In this document: positions 39,129 to 46,556 of the stretch, piece after piece | How the letters are laid out: the number at the start of each line of letters is the position of its first letter | Numbering within the stretch: the first letter of the stretch is position 1 | From: Elusimicrobiaceae bacterium | GTDB taxonomy: Bacteria > Elusimicrobiota > Elusimicrobia > Elusimicrobiales > Elusimicrobiaceae | Length of the DNA stretch: 64,000 nucleotides | NCBI GenBank assembly: GCA_017618215.1 | Contig: JAFZUQ010000004.1 | Span: 62,001 to 126,000 of the forward strand | Direction of reading: 5' to 3' | Position numbers and translations under genes: made by a program | The notes under the pieces: generated by a model | What the model saw: only the letters and a program-made list of their open reading frames with translations | What the model was told of the DNA's origin: nothing | The model's database searches: none

Positions 39129-42100
39129 CTACTTATTCTCCTTTTTTGCATTAGCATTGTTTCCGCCAAAACTTATTCTTACTCCGGCATTAAGGCCCCA
39201 ACCGCTTATTTTATTGCCGGACTCATAAGTTCCTAAAGCATGCCAATATAAATTATCGGCTAATTGCATATTTATACCTGTGGCTATTTCAAAACTGCCG
39301 CCATTAAGTGAGGTTTTAGCTGTGGCACCGTCATATCTTACTTTACCTCTTCCGGCAAATTCTTGATTATATGCAAGTTCCAAAAGTGGTTGTATCAGTA
39401 ATTTACTATTCATTTCTTTTGTATACGTAAACATGATGGCTGCTTTACCTGCAAAATAATTCACTGAATCATAAGTTAAATTGCCGACACCGTTTGTAAC
39501 AGGAGTACTATCTTTGTTTGCGTTCATATAAGAAATTTCCGCTTTTGGTTGTAATTTAAAATCTGTTTCAATATCTATATTTTTACCGACTTCAAGGCTT
39601 GTTGTAAACAAATTGCGTTTTACATCAAAATTAAGAAATGTATCGCTTGCTGTATGGACTGTATTTTCTATTTTTGTCCAGAAATTTCGTGCAGCAAGGT
39701 CAATAAACCATCCCTTTTCGTTCGTCATTGTAGCGTAAATGCCAATACTTGGGGCATTACCTTTGCCATTATTGTTATTTCCGGAACTGTTTTTGGTTTT
39801 TATCGAGTCTGACTGTAAATATCCTATCATTACACCGGCATATAATTTTGTCGGCTCATCTGCTTTGAACAACCAGTCATAACCTGCTTCTACGCCAAAT
39901 AAAGACATATCTGTTTTGATTAAATCATCTACTGTCATATCTTTATAATAAATCCTTGACCAAACACCCTGTTTTTTGTTTGGGTTATTCATATCATGCA
40001 GTTCTCCCATACGTTTATTGAGGGAGTTCATGCCGGTTCTTGCCATTACGGCATTTAGTGACGGGATATTCAACATAGTTTTAAAGGTATCGGTCAATTC
40101 TCCGGTAGATCTCAAATAATAATCCGGGTCATTTTCATTTTGGAAAAGTTTATATATGTAAGCCCCTTCATCCCATTTACCACCACGTAAGGAGAATGTT
40201 CCTCCGCCTGTATTAGCAGAGTCAAAATCTATTAAAAGGATACCGTCTCCCGTTGTTTGATTTGCGGTGTTGCCGAGATTTGTAAGAGTCAATATAGAAT
40301 TACCCGTATAAGTACCAGTTATCGAAATTTGGTCTGCGGTTTGATCTTCTAAATTAACACCCATGGAAATATTTGCATTGTTTGCAGAAAGATTTTTGAA
40401 TCCTACTGAAAAAGGAGAATTGCCTTCATGATTAAATATAAGATTTCCATTATCTAACGCGGTTGTTCCCTGCAAAGTATTCGAATCGGCAATTTGCAAA
40501 GTACCATTAGCTCCGGTGTTAGTATAATCTTCCAAATATCCACCGGAAGCCAAAATTACTGTACCTCCATTGTTAGATGTGTTCAAAGAAACGCCGGTAC
40601 TTCCAATATATTGCTGTCCACTGTTGATGGTTGTATTTACTGCCGAACCATGCTCAATTTGTTGATAGCCACCATTATCAACGATAGTATCTGTCGCAGT
40701 TCCTCCAAGTGAGATAACTTGTGTGCCGCCGCTGGCAACAGTTATACTTGTTGCAGAACCCCAAACGGTTTGTAAACCGCCGCTATTAACTGTTGTGTCT
40801 ATTGATGAGCCGCCCAGTAAAATTCTTTGTTCTCCGCCGGAATTAACGATGGTAGTTATTGCATTGCCGCCTTCGTATACATATTGCGTAGCACTGTTAC
40901 CAATAGTTGTACTTGTTGCAGAAGCATTGTCGTAAATATACTGTCTACCGTAGGAAGTAATATCTGTATTCATTGCAGAACCGCCAGAGTTGATATATTG
41001 TCTGCCAGCACTGTCAATAAAAGTGTTTGTCGCCGAACCGTCTTCATAAATGTATTGATAACCGCCATCAATGTATGTATCTGACACATTGGCGGAATAA
41101 ACATGTTGATAACTGGCGGAATTGATTGTTGTGTCACTAGCATAACCACCGCTATAAACATATTGATAACTGCTGGAATTGATTATTGTGCCACTAGCAT
41201 AACCGCTATCATAAACATATTGATAGGTAGCACCATTTATAGTCGTACTGATTGCAGTACCGCCATTATAAACATCTTGATGACCGCTTTCAATGATTGT
41301 ATTTACAGCAGAACCCGTGCCATAAACCAATTGAACACCGCCATTAATGATTGTATTTGTGGCTAAACCGTTATCTTCAATATATTGTGTCCCACCATTA
41401 ACGATTGTACTGTTTACAGTACCCCCTCCATAAACATATTGTACAGCAGAATCATTTAGTGAAGTATTTATGACACTACCGTAATAGTGAACAATCTGTA
41501 AGCCGTTATCATTAATGGTCGTATTTATAGCAGAACCATTAACGACATACTGCGAACCATTGTTATTAATGGTCGTATCTTCTGCTATAGCGCCACTTTG
41601 GACTTCTTGTATACTATTATCGTTAATGGTTGTACTTGTTGCGGAAGCACTACTAACAAGGTATTGACTACCATTTCCATTAATGGTTGTGTTCGTTACA
41701 ACCCCACCGCTAACGTATTGAAAACCGCCATTAATGTTCGTATCCGTGGCCGAACCGCCACTTATTCGTTGGTGTCCTTCTTCTAGTGTAGTATTCGTTG
41801 CTAAACCATCTTGTAAAATTACTTGACTACCGTTAGAATTAATAGTTGCATTTATTGAAGAACCGCCATCATAAATATTTTCTGTGCCTCCTGAATTAAT
41901 TGTAGTAGATATTGTTGTTCCATAATTATCTAAAGTGCTAACCACACTGTTTCCCGTTTCAATACCTACGGTTAAACCTGTTGAAGTTTCCCCTGCACTT
42001 ACGATTAAATTTGCATAAGCAGGCACCGTGTTATTTAAAAGCATACCTGTCATTGCTGCGGTATAAAGGATTTTTTTGCCACCATTTATAATGCGCATCG

Positions 42101-42203
42101 GTAGGTTTACTGAGCAGCTACTAAGCTCGGCTTCACTTGTAACTACACTGCGGCTATGGCAGTAAATATCTTCTAATTCTTGTACATAACGGCTAGTGTT
42201 CAT
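39129..42203 (-). CDS. AIDA-type autotransporter
   Basis: 1024 residues. A long signal region (about 1-64: 40 polar residues, then ILYTAAMTGMLL ... VPAYA) recalls extended autotransporter signals. The passenger (about 90-565) has ~23 tandem units of about 20 residues, such as INSGGTQYIEDNGLATNT, of the AIDA/TibA type that form a beta-helix and are often adhesins. A pertactin-like junction (about 590-740) leads to a C-terminal beta-barrel (about 760-1012). The barrel's usual final Phe is internal (VRISF) and followed by a 13-residue basic/Asn tail, which is odd. GAGGA precedes the start. Confidence 0.9.
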   Translation of the reverse strand: MNTSRYVQELEDIYCHSRSVVTSEAELSSCSVNLPMRIINGGKKILYTAAMTGMLLNNTVPAYANLIVSAGETSTGLTVGIETGNSVVSTLDNYGTTISTTINSGGTENIYDGGSSINATINSNGSQVILQDGLATNTTLEEGHQRISGGSATDTNINGGFQYVSGGVVTNTTINGNGSQYLVSSASATSTTINDNSIQEVQSGAIAEDTTINNNGSQYVVNGSAINTTINDNGLQIVHYYGSVINTSLNDSAVQYVYGGGTVNSTIVNGGTQYIEDNGLATNTIINGGVQLVYGTGSAVNTIIESGHQDVYNGGTAISTTINGATYQYVYDSGYASGTIINSSSYQYVYSGGYASDTTINSASYQHVYSANVSDTYIDGGYQYIYEDGSATNTFIDSAGRQYINSGGSAMNTDITSYGRQYIYDNASATSTTIGNSATQYVYEGGNAITTIVNSGGEQRILLGGSSIDTTVNSGGLQTVWGSATSITVASGGTQVISLGGTATDTIVDNGGYQQIEHGSAVNTTINSGQQYIGSTGVSLNTSNNGGTVILASGGYLEDYTNTGANGTLQIADSNTLQGTTALDNGNLIFNHEGNSPFSVGFKNLSANNANISMGVNLEDQTADQISITGTYTGNSILTLTNLGNTANQTTGDGILLIDFDSANTGGGTFSLRGGKWDEGAYIYKLFQNENDPDYYLRSTGELTDTFKTMLNIPSLNAVMARTGMNSLNKRMGELHDMNNPNKKQGVWSRIYYKDMTVDDLIKTDMSLFGVEAGYDWLFKADEPTKLYAGVMIGYLQSDSIKTKNSSGNNNNGKGNAPSIGIYATMTNEKGWFIDLAARNFWTKIENTVHTASDTFLNFDVKRNLFTTSLEVGKNIDIETDFKLQPKAEISYMNANKDSTPVTNGVGNLTYDSVNYFAGKAAIMFTYTKEMNSKLLIQPLLELAYNQEFAGRGKVRYDGATAKTSLNGGSFEIATGINMQLADNLYWHALGTYESGNKISGWGLNAGVRISFGGNNANAKKENK
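40520..41920 (-). repeat. Tandem ~60-base coding repeats of the autotransporter passenger
   Basis: About 23 degenerate units of roughly 57-63 bases encode the AIDA-like repeats; DNA identity between units is low except for short motifs, so expansion is old, or selection diversified the units. Confidence 0.75.
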
Positions 42204-44600: not shown

Positions 44601-44676
44601 AGCACACCTCTTTTATCTTAATAAAACGAGTATTGGAATAATTTAATTTTAGCATTTTCAAAAAACAAATATATAG

Positions 44677-44682
44677 TATAAT
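44677..44682 (+). promoter_or_regulatory. -10 box of the precursor/radical SAM unit
   Basis: TATAAT, about 36 bases before the GTG start at 44718; a weak -35 (TTTTCA) lies 16 bases upstream. Transcription would start near 44689, giving a ~29-base leader with AGGAG. Confidence 0.6.
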
Positions 44683-44717
44683 ATGGGTATTAGATAAAAA
44701 TGGTATAGGAGATAAGT

Positions 44718-45188
44718 GTGAGCAGAAAAATATTAAAAGTATTGATTTCTATTTTATTTTTGGCGGCAGCTGCCGTCGCGGCTGTCTTTTCTATAAAAAG
44801 TTTTTTTCCGGAATTATTTGAGCAAGTGAAATACGGAGTAAAACGTATTGTAGGAGAACCTGCCCGCAAAACACCTGCCTTTAAAAAAGATAACCTGGAA
44901 AATAACAACGAAGTAAAACCTGTTGGGGTACAAACCTCAAGTCCTAATACACTTAAAAGACCACCTTATCGCCGAGATGTGACAGGTGCATACGGTGTTG
45001 CTCCTGTTCGTCCAATAGATGTCGGAAGGGCTAAATACGGTGTTGCGCCTGTGCGCCCGATACCCGTATATGACGATAATACGGAAAAATATGGTGTTGC
45101 TCATATTCAAAAACTGGAACAAGAAAATTTGCTGAAAAATCAAATTGTTTACGATGTAGAAGAATTAGGCCAAGATCTAAAAAAATAA
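44718..45188 (+). CDS. Membrane-anchored repeat peptide, putative radical SAM substrate
   Basis: 156 residues with a GTG start, AGGAG six bases upstream. An N-terminal membrane segment (about 5-27, ILKVLISILFLAAAAVAAVF) is followed by a charged stretch and then tandem units: AYGVAPVRPIDVGR (91-104), KYGVAPVRPIPVYDD (106-120) and KYGVAHIQKLE (124-134), with a fourth KYGVKRI at 38-44. The tail is acidic (VEELGQDLKK). There are no cysteines. It is not a recognised family, but a small repeat protein ending right before a SPASM radical SAM gene (TAA-ATG) is the usual layout of a peptide modified by that enzyme. Confidence 0.6.
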   Translation: MSRKILKVLISILFLAAAAVAAVFSIKSFFPELFEQVKYGVKRIVGEPARKTPAFKKDNLENNNEVKPVGVQTSSPNTLKRPPYRRDVTGAYGVAPVRPIDVGRAKYGVAPVRPIPVYDDNTEKYGVAHIQKLEQENLLKNQIVYDVEELGQDLKK

Positions 45189-46403
45189 ATGCCGATATTT
45201 CCTAAAAAATTATATAGCGTTGTGTGGGAGTTAACTTTAAAATGTAATGCACATTGTCAGCATTGCGGCTCTTCCGCCGGAAAAACAAGGGAAAAAGAGT
45301 TAACCCTAGAAGAAAATCTCCGTATCTGCGACCAACTTATAGAGTTAAAATGTGAAAGAATCAATCTTATGGGCGGGGAATTATTTTTGAACCCGGACTG
45401 GAAAAAGATTGCCGCGTACCTCTCAAAAAACGGTGTTTTGGTTTCAATTATCACTAACGGAATTTTATTAAATCAAGAAAATCTTGATTTCCTTAAAAAA
45501 ATAAATACCGAAACTATCGGCCTAAGCATTGACGGCGGCCTTGCGCAAACGCATGACGATGTCAGGCGCGTTCCGGGCTTGTTTAACAAGATTTTTGAAA
45601 ATATGCCAAATATTTTAAAAGCCGGCATACCCGTCGTAGCAATAACCACTTTAACAAAAAAGAATATTTTAGAATTAAATATTTTAAAACAAAAACTTTT
45701 GGATGCCGGTTTTAGGGGGTGGCAATTCCAGATGGCGGTTCCTTATGGCAGAATGGCAGAAAAGTTTTTGTTAAGTAAAGAAGAATATTATATTGCAGGG
45801 CTTTTCGGCGCAAAAAATAAATTGGCTATTCCGCAAAGTAAATTTCAAATAACTTGTATGCACGATTTCGGTTATTATTCAAAAGTAATTCCAATTAGGC
45901 AAAAACTTTTTGCTTGGAAGGGTTGCCCTGCCGGAAAATCGGGCCTTGGTATACGCAGCGACGGCAAAATACACGGCTGCTTATCTATGCAAAATGATAA
46001 ATTTGCGGAAAGAGATTTTAGAAAAGAAACCCTAAAAGAAATTTTTTATTCCAAAAATTTTTGCACTTGGAACAAACGTTTTAGTAAATATAAAAAACTG
46101 GGCGGCTTTTGCAAAGAATGTGAATACGGTTTAATTTGTTTGGGCGGTTGTTCCGACACCGCACATTCGGTAACCGGGAATGTAGGTGATAATCCTTTTT
46201 GTTATCATGCAATAGAAGTTGCCTACAAAAACTTAAAACCCACAAATGATTTTGAGGCGATATTTAAAAGCATTACCCAAGGCAAATTGGCGGACGACGG
46301 TAAATTTTACCTTAGTACAAAGGAAGAACTGACAACTGACTTAATTGACAAACTTAATATAACTGCCCAGCAAAAACAACTTCTAAAATTACTGACGGAT
46401 TGA
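45189..46403 (+). CDS. Radical SAM/SPASM domain enzyme
   Basis: 404 residues. The radical SAM cluster motif CNAHCQHC lies at about residues 19-26 (CxxxCxxC), GGELF near 58 and SIDGG near 112 are standard. A SPASM region with auxiliary cluster cysteines follows at about 245-330: GCPAG, GCLSM, CKECEYGLICLGGC and FCYHA. A ~65-residue C-terminal extension is not recognised. SPASM enzymes mature ribosomally made peptides (for example PqqE, thioether-forming enzymes) or activate sulfatases. It directly follows the repeat peptide gene, its probable substrate, with no separate Shine-Dalgarno site. Confidence 0.9.
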   Translation: MPIFPKKLYSVVWELTLKCNAHCQHCGSSAGKTREKELTLEENLRICDQLIELKCERINLMGGELFLNPDWKKIAAYLSKNGVLVSIITNGILLNQENLDFLKKINTETIGLSIDGGLAQTHDDVRRVPGLFNKIFENMPNILKAGIPVVAITTLTKKNILELNILKQKLLDAGFRGWQFQMAVPYGRMAEKFLLSKEEYYIAGLFGAKNKLAIPQSKFQITCMHDFGYYSKVIPIRQKLFAWKGCPAGKSGLGIRSDGKIHGCLSMQNDKFAERDFRKETLKEIFYSKNFCTWNKRFSKYKKLGGFCKECEYGLICLGGCSDTAHSVTGNVGDNPFCYHAIEVAYKNLKPTNDFEAIFKSITQGKLADDGKFYLSTKEELTTDLIDKLNITAQQKQLLKLLTD

Positions 46404-46448: not shown

Positions 46449-46526
46449 GGAGTCATGGTGTAGCCTGGTTAACACGCTGCCCTGTCAAGGCAGAGACCGC
46501 GGGTTCAAATCCCGTTGACTCCGCCA
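46449..46526 (+). tRNA. tRNA-Asp (anticodon GUC)
   Basis: Complete cloverleaf: acceptor GGAGTCA/TGACTCC, anticodon arm CTGCC-CTGTCAA-GGCAG, T arm CGGG-TTCAAAT-CCCG. Discriminator G and the 3' CCA is encoded, in contrast to the other two tRNAs of the window. Confidence 0.97.
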
Positions 46527-46529
46527 TTT

Positions 46530-46556
46530 AAAAGCACCCTTTTGGGTGCTTTTTGA
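46530..46556 (+). terminator. Terminator of tRNA-Asp
   Basis: AAAAGCACCC pairs with GGGTGCTTTT around TTTT, followed by a further T and GATTTTTT. Confidence 0.92.

What the first reader, a model, noticed from the sequence alone, without database searches (positions are those of the whole stretch)
44718..46403. Two-gene unit: membrane-anchored YGVAPVRPI repeat peptide and a SPASM radical SAM enzyme
Seen: a 156-residue protein with one N-terminal membrane helix and repeated units (YGVAPVRPI twice, YGVAHIQKL, and an earlier KYGVKRI), followed with no gap (TAA-ATG) by a 404-residue enzyme with CxxxCxxC and a full SPASM cysteine set plus a ~65-residue C-terminal extension. Established: SPASM enzymes often modify short repeated cores in a peptide encoded next door. 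Inference: the Tyr, Val, Pro or Arg of each unit is modified, and since the substrate has a membrane helix instead of a soluble leader, the product may stay on the cell surface or periplasmic side. The nearest concept I know is the radical SAM/lipoprotein pairings described in Bacteroidetes and relatives, but this substrate lacks a lipobox and cysteine, so it may be a different class. Tandem units of 15-18 residues suggest several modifications per chain.
Basis: partly seen in the sequence, partly recalled or inferred. Interest (0 to 1): 0.82.

Follow-up and report, generated by a model that had tools for sequence, protein, structure and literature searches.

The report
Membrane-anchored peptide plus splicease-like enzyme
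An Elusimicrobiota bacterium carries a two-gene unit whose small membrane-anchored protein bears four Lys/Ala-Tyr-Gly motifs and sits directly before a radical SAM enzyme; related units in three phyla, and the same motif beside the known tyramine-excising 'splicease' enzymes, suggest that the enzyme cuts tyrosine pieces out of the chain and leaves reactive keto-amides, a known chemistry in a new membrane-bound setting.

Summary
In detail: a 156-aa single-helix protein (GTG 44718-45188) with four XYG sites (KYG, AYG, KYG, KYG) abuts, with zero gap, a 404-aa radical SAM/SPASM enzyme. It recurs. Seven enzymes forming one clade (support 100) from Elusimicrobiota, Melainabacteria and Alphaproteobacteria each have, directly upstream on the same strand, a small membrane or signal-peptide protein with XYG sites. 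Across 341 genomes of the phylum, strong precursor hits occur only in the three that have this enzyme. The genome also holds an orphan 50-aa second precursor (EKYGVAPSEHL). [quoted passage not shown] It is not filed as a PlpXY cluster: score far below the family cut-off, no Nif11 leader, no PlpY gene. The membrane anchor, own C-terminal extension and Lys/Arg at X (11 of 15 sites) make it a new variant of a known kind. The chemistry itself is untested.

The parts
44655..44682 (+). promoter-like site TTTTCA-16-TATAAT upstream of the unit
   Evidence: consensus match only; about as many are found in shuffled sequence
44708..44712 (+). Shine-Dalgarno AGGAG, 5 nt before GTG; the same AGGAGATAAGTGTGAGC stands before the orphan paralogue
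44718..45188 (+). precursor protein, 156 aa, N-terminal membrane helix and four XYG sites
44739..44795 (+). membrane helix, about residues 8-26
   Evidence: hydropathy
44829..44837 (+). XYG site 1, K38-Y39-G40 (QVKYGVKRI)
44988..44996 (+). XYG site 2, A91-Y92-G93 (GAYGVAPVRPI)
45033..45041 (+). XYG site 3, K106-Y107-G108 (AKYGVAPVRPI)
45087..45095 (+). XYG site 4, K124-Y125-G126 (EKYGVAHIQKL)
45189..46403 (+). radical SAM/SPASM enzyme, 404 aa, splicease-like
45243..45266 (+). radical SAM cluster motif C19-x3-C23-x2-C26
45924..46202 (+). SPASM region, C246 to C338 (seven invariant Cys)
46221..46400 (+). clade-specific C-terminal extension (residues 345-404), ordered in the model, no PDB match when folded alone
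46449..46526 (+). tRNA-Asp(gtc) directly downstream, then terminator-like hairpin 46530-46553 (surroundings, not part of the mechanism)

Best explanation
The pair is a precursor and its splicease-like maturase. [quoted passage not shown] The N-terminal helix then holds the tail with up to four keto-amides on the outer side of the inner membrane, where they most likely act as protease-trapping groups with Lys in the P1 position. Shown: gene pair, motifs, recurrence, enzyme family relationship. Inferred: chemistry (from the PlpX family), order relative to export, sidedness (from the N-terminal Lys/Arg), inhibitor role.
For: (1) Best NCBIfam match is TIGR04103, 231.6 bits, E 1e-68; the other clade-1 enzymes scanned agree. 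PlpX, the enzyme shown to excise tyramine at Xaa-Tyr-Gly, is a member of IPR026482 (PMC11002830), which I take from memory to be this family. (2) Of 386 genomes drawn from the phylum of the Melainabacteria relative, 20 have TIGR04103 enzymes over cut-off; their adjacent small proteins carry the same cores (QPLYGVVWPP, RPMYGLPPD); weaker members have QPKYGLPMPI x5 and APMYGMPVRPP-type repeats x7. Published PlpA splice tags are PIRP-XYG-LPI and AVAA-XYG-VVFP (PMC10533398), close to the window's AKYGVAPVRPI and the Melainabacteria TKYGVYFPD. (3) Over all 400 dipeptides in small same-strand ORFs beside the enzyme, YG is the most over-represented in clade 1 (obs/exp 4.0, rank 1) and in the PlpX family (3.6, rank 1), but not beside Elusimicrobia clade 2 (rank 237) or Clostridia relatives (rank 228). 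(4) Seven of seven clade-1 loci, across three phyla, have the precursor directly upstream on the same strand, gaps -1 to 64 nt; 15 YG[VIL] sites against 0.55 in shuffles, maximum 6 in 20,000. (5) In 341 genomes of the phylum strong precursor hits (E 2e-18 or better) occur only in the three with a clade-1 enzyme (3/3 against 0/338, p 1.5e-7). (6) Lys/Arg at X in 11 of 15 sites, background 15%, p 8e-7. (7) The model is a SPASM peptide-maturase fold: SuiB Z 27.8, SkfB 27.0, anSME 25.8.
Against: The enzyme is far below the TIGR04103 cut-off (231.6 of 725) and clade 1 lies outside the PlpX clade, nearer archaeal and Elusimicrobia enzymes, so the reaction could have changed. No PlpY gene is in the unit. 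The nearest large sister group, Elusimicrobia clade 2, has no XYG gene beside it. One clade-1 precursor (L011) has only VYGEVP, and those of L012 and L162 are larger multi-helix proteins with fewer sites. The inhibitor role rests only on literature statements that spliceotide products are protease inhibitors (PMC10373908, PMC11117315) and on Lys at X. No modified peptide has been seen. The precursor model in (5) was built from the same three genomes, so only its absence elsewhere is independent.
Confidence: 0.62

Rival explanations
1. The pair is a genuine precursor and maturase, but this clade does other radical chemistry at the YG site, for example a Tyr cross-link, dehydrogenation or epimerisation, instead of tyramine excision.
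For: Clade 1 is outside the PlpX clade and the window enzyme is 29-34% identical to PlpX-type enzymes; SPASM enzymes with the same fold do many reactions; no PlpY gene is present.
Against: Gly directly after Tyr is kept at every site, and the [VIL]..P surroundings match PlpX-family precursors; XYG is the reported splice motif.
Confidence: 0.22
2. The enzyme's substrate lies elsewhere, and the upstream gene is an accessory or membrane-tethering partner that merely shares an operon.
For: In two Alphaproteobacteria the upstream gene is a larger multi-helix protein; one precursor copy lies on another contig, away from the enzyme.
Against: The XYG motif is the only thing the upstream proteins share across phyla; the orphan copy keeps the same motif and even the same ribosome-binding context.
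Confidence: 0.1
3. No modification takes place; the repeats are structural and the small protein is a membrane or pilin-like protein of unrelated role.
For: The segment IKSFFPELFEQVK just after the helix resembles the Flp pilin of the same genome, IKNFMPELFEQIK.
Against: Perfect co-occurrence with the enzyme in the phylum and immediate linkage in three phyla; the pilin-like segment is missing in the G308, Melainabacteria and alphaproteobacterial precursors, while XYG stays.
Confidence: 0.06

Closest known systems
PlpX/PlpY splicease and spliceotide precursors PlpA (Pleurocapsa), family TIGR04103/IPR026482
   Same: Radical SAM/SPASM enzyme of the best-matching family; precursor with repeated Xaa-Tyr-Gly sites in a [VIL]..P setting; several sites per chain
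   Different: Score well under the family cut-off; no Nif11 or nitrile-hydratase leader but a membrane helix; no PlpY gene; own C-terminal extension; mostly Lys/Arg instead of Leu/Met at X
Radical SAM/SPASM and lipoprotein pair of Bacteroidetes (TIGR04133/TIGR04134)
   Same: SPASM enzyme next to a small exported protein
   Different: Enzyme scores only 124.9 bits to TIGR04133 (cut-off 425); no lipobox; TIGR04134 not found in the relatives; the single Bacteroidota TIGR04134 hit read here has no YG site
GDL-motif peptide maturase TIGR03913
   Same: Second-best family, 185.8 bits
   Different: Far below its cut-off of 591.75; the precursor here shows no GDL motif
Anaerobic sulfatase-maturating enzymes (anSME)
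   Same: SPASM fold (Z 25.8) and, from general knowledge, acts on proteins that are exported afterwards
   Different: The precursor has no Cys, so the Cys-type anSME site is absent; sulfatases in the genome were not looked for

Membership tests
TIGR04103 / PlpX-type splicease | Score over the curated cut-off (725 bits) | tested here: not met
   231.6 bits, best of all NCBIfam families
TIGR04103 / PlpX-type splicease | Radical SAM CxxxCxxC and SPASM cysteines | tested here: met
   Invariant over 31 sequences; Pfam hits
Spliceotide system | Precursor with Xaa-Tyr-Gly site(s) encoded beside the enzyme | tested here: met
   Four sites, zero gap; recurs in 7 of 7 clade-1 loci
Spliceotide system (PlpXY type) | PlpY partner protein encoded with the enzyme | tested here: not met
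   No further gene in the unit; neighbours are DUF2238, tRNA-Asp, purB. A PqqD search of seven clade-1 genomes found none over cut-off, but that model is not expected to see PlpY
Spliceotide system (PlpXY type) | Nif11- or nitrile-hydratase-like leader | tested here: not met
   No Pfam or NCBIfam family; membrane helix instead
Spliceotide system | Tyramine excision, -135.08 Da per site | not testable with these tools
   Needs co-expression and mass spectrometry
rSAM/lipoprotein pair TIGR04133/TIGR04134 | Enzyme over TIGR04133 cut-off and lipoprotein of TIGR04134 | tested here: not met
   124.9 of 425 bits; TIGR04134 no hit in the precursor or in relatives' genomes

The most novel reading that the evidence does not exclude
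A membrane-tethered class of splicease product: a PlpY-free splicease with a built-in C-terminal recognition part acts on short inner-membrane-anchored proteins and displays rows of Lys/Arg-derived keto-amides outside, as a fixed shield against trypsin-like proteases, with more than one substrate gene per genome.
Probability: 0.25. Interest if true: 0.75.

Novelty: new variant of a known kind. Interest (0 to 1): 0.52.

Why it matters
If true, backbone splicing by radical SAM enzymes is used on membrane-anchored proteins in small-genome bacteria of the Elusimicrobiota, Melainabacteria and Alphaproteobacteria, without the helper protein and soluble leader known from cyanobacteria. It gives a compact two-gene system to test for making reactive keto-amides in proteins, and a clear guess at biological role (Lys-directed protease trapping at the cell envelope).

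Tried and rejected
Rejected: the rSAM/lipoprotein pair as nearest kin (the Bacteroidota sample of 198 genomes gave one weak TIGR04134 hit without YG, so a wider link stays untested). Rejected: sulfatase activation as the main role, since family scores point elsewhere and the precursor has no Cys. Led nowhere: IMG/VR scan for relatives (none); Pfam and NCBIfam for the precursors (no family over its cut-off, apart from an acidic disulfide repeat in the myxobacterial L034 protein); weak precursor-model hits in other genomes, of which those read were Flp pilins (L130, L192) or an unrelated protein (L129); the C-terminal extension folded alone (mean pLDDT 84.8) has no PDB match (best E 1.4), which does not show a new fold. 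A PqqD/RRE search in seven genomes found nothing over cut-off. Papers central to the comparison could not be read: Scott et al. 2022 (Chem) and Richter et al. 2024 (Chem Sci) are not held, and Morinaka et al. 2018 is known here only through citing papers.

Full report
WHAT IS THERE. The window holds a two-gene unit at 44718-46403 on the + strand. Gene 1 starts with GTG, 5 nt after AGGAG, and encodes 156 aa with one N-terminal hydrophobic helix. Gene 2 starts directly after its TAA and encodes a 404-aa radical SAM/SPASM enzyme. The neighbours are a DUF2238 membrane protein on the other strand, a tRNA-Asp and purB. The window lies in an Elusimicrobiota genome of 1.34 Mb: two of its same-order relatives' enzymes are identical to enzymes in records named Elusimicrobium minutum isolate TT109 and uncultured Elusimicrobia MJ_bin-1308.

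MORE THAN CHANCE. The 156-aa protein has four YGV triplets, preceded by K, A, K, K; 48 other window proteins (18,215 aa) have none. The two YGVAPVRPI copies differ at four third codon positions and at no amino acid, and no DNA tandem repeat is found: selection keeps the peptide.

RECURRENCE. Enzyme relatives were collected from genome contigs and from whole genomes. Seven form a clade with full support: the window, G069 (same family, 59%), G308 (same phylum, other family, 59%), a Melainabacteria genome (59%) and three Alphaproteobacteria (43-45% for the two measured against the window; the third, L162, is 83% identical to one of them). In all seven the gene directly upstream on the same strand, gaps -1 to 64 nt, encodes a protein with a signal or membrane helix and XYG sites: VRYGVGVPR and LYGISVP in G069, plus a second 50-aa precursor TKYGLGG there; EKYGVLPPDERR in G308; TKYGVYFPD in Melainabacteria; EKYGVAYVTDYGVEWDE, AKYGVQPA and VYGEVP in the Alphaproteobacteria. 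The last group's upstream proteins are larger and the motif is thinner, above all in L011. Together the nine precursors have 15 YG[VIL] sites against 0.55 expected from shuffles (maximum 6 in 20,000).

ORPHAN COPY. A second precursor lies on another contig of the same genome, 50 aa, MSRKILKILISLLFLIVIALAAFAIKTFMPDLFDTVEKYGVAPSEHLSNI, with the same AGGAGATAAGTGTGAGC start region and a hairpin with T-run after the stop. Its divergent neighbour is a secreted trypsin-family protein (Pfam Trypsin 4e-13).

CO-OCCURRENCE. A model built from five precursors, run over 341 genomes of the phylum, gives strong hits (E 2e-18 or better) only in the three genomes that have the clade-1 enzyme; next best is 3e-6, an unrelated protein. 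The presence side is circular, the absence side is not.

WHAT THE ENZYME IS. NCBIfam's best match is TIGR04103 at 231.6 bits (cut-off 725), ahead of TIGR03913 (185.8) and TIGR04133 (124.9). [quoted passage not shown]); that IPR026482 corresponds to TIGR04103 is from memory. I therefore read 24 genomes with strong TIGR04103 enzymes. Most have Nif11-type precursors beside the enzyme with QPLYGVVWPP-like cores and, in two divergent cases, proteins with QPKYGLPMPI x5 and APMYGMPVRPP-type repeats x7. The published PlpA tags PIRP(X)YGLPI and AVAA(X)YGVVFP match the window's cores in kind. As an unbiased check, I ranked all 400 dipeptides in small same-strand ORFs beside each enzyme: YG is first in clade 1 and first in the PlpX family, second in a myxobacterial group, third in Methanosarcinales, fourth in Thermoplasmata, and about 230th beside Elusimicrobia clade 2 and Clostridia relatives. 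The predicted structure (mean pLDDT 92.1) is a SPASM peptide-maturase fold.

MECHANISM. Most likely the enzyme splices out tyramine at each XYG site, in the cytoplasm, before the tail crosses the membrane; anSME acting on proteins exported later is a precedent from general knowledge. Literature statements say spliceotide products inhibit proteases (PMC10373908, PMC11117315). In clade 1 the residue to be converted is Lys or Arg in 11 of 15 sites (background 15%, p 8e-7), which would give P1-Lys keto-amides; an inhibitor of trypsin-like enzymes is the natural guess, and it is only a guess. The trypsin-family neighbour of the orphan does not have Asp at the place of trypsin's specificity residue by eye, and no protease stands beside the G069 and G308 loci, so that link is weak.

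WHAT IS DIFFERENT. No Nif11 leader, no PlpY gene, a membrane anchor, and a clade-specific ordered C-terminal extension of about 55 residues that is truncated or changed in the Melainabacteria member. A published structural definition notes that PlpY is too small to be an RRE (PMC12710340), so the negative PqqD search says little about a helper elsewhere. The extension may take PlpY's role; this is inference. Because defining features of the PlpXY system were tested and not met, I do not file this as a member; I say it works like one.

LIMITS. Genome searches used all 12 allowed. The survey paper on the spread of spliceases (Scott et al. 2022) is not held, so members like this may already be listed there. 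No chemistry was tested.

Noticed in passing
L009:1501-1653 (G000:C11, near 77.65 kb; also in L158): Orphan 50-aa precursor paralogue, about 130 bp from a divergent secreted trypsin-family protease gene (L158:6609-7520, minus strand); a possible inhibitor and target pair.
   Followed up: partly
window 44718-44830; L192:494-703; L130:1393-1605: The segment after the precursor's helix (IKSFFPELFEQVK) closely resembles the Flp/Tad pilin of the same genome (IKNFMPELFEQIK); the anchor may derive from a pilin, though it lacks the pilin cleavage region.
   Followed up: partly
L016, L018, L020, L021 (Thermoplasmata), L019 (Thorarchaeota): Small, often tandem precursors ending in YYGTISINDF / KYGSISPND beside related radical SAM enzymes: XYG-type candidates in archaea.
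   Followed up: partly
L082, L087, L054, L067, L084 (Myxococcota): Proteins with repeated YGAPxP/YGSPxP sites (in L082 and L087 with a zinc-ribbon start and a hydrophobic segment) beside TIGR04103-like enzymes.
   Followed up: partly
L013:338-862: 174-aa signal-peptide protein with five YGVP(VARP) repeats directly before a divergent relative of the enzyme in an uncultured bacterium.
   Followed up: partly
L103-L125, L004 (Elusimicrobia clade 2): A common related enzyme with no XYG gene beside it; its substrate is unknown.
   Followed up: no
window 39129-42203, minus strand: 1024-aa autotransporter-like protein with many TTINSGG-type repeats.
   Followed up: no
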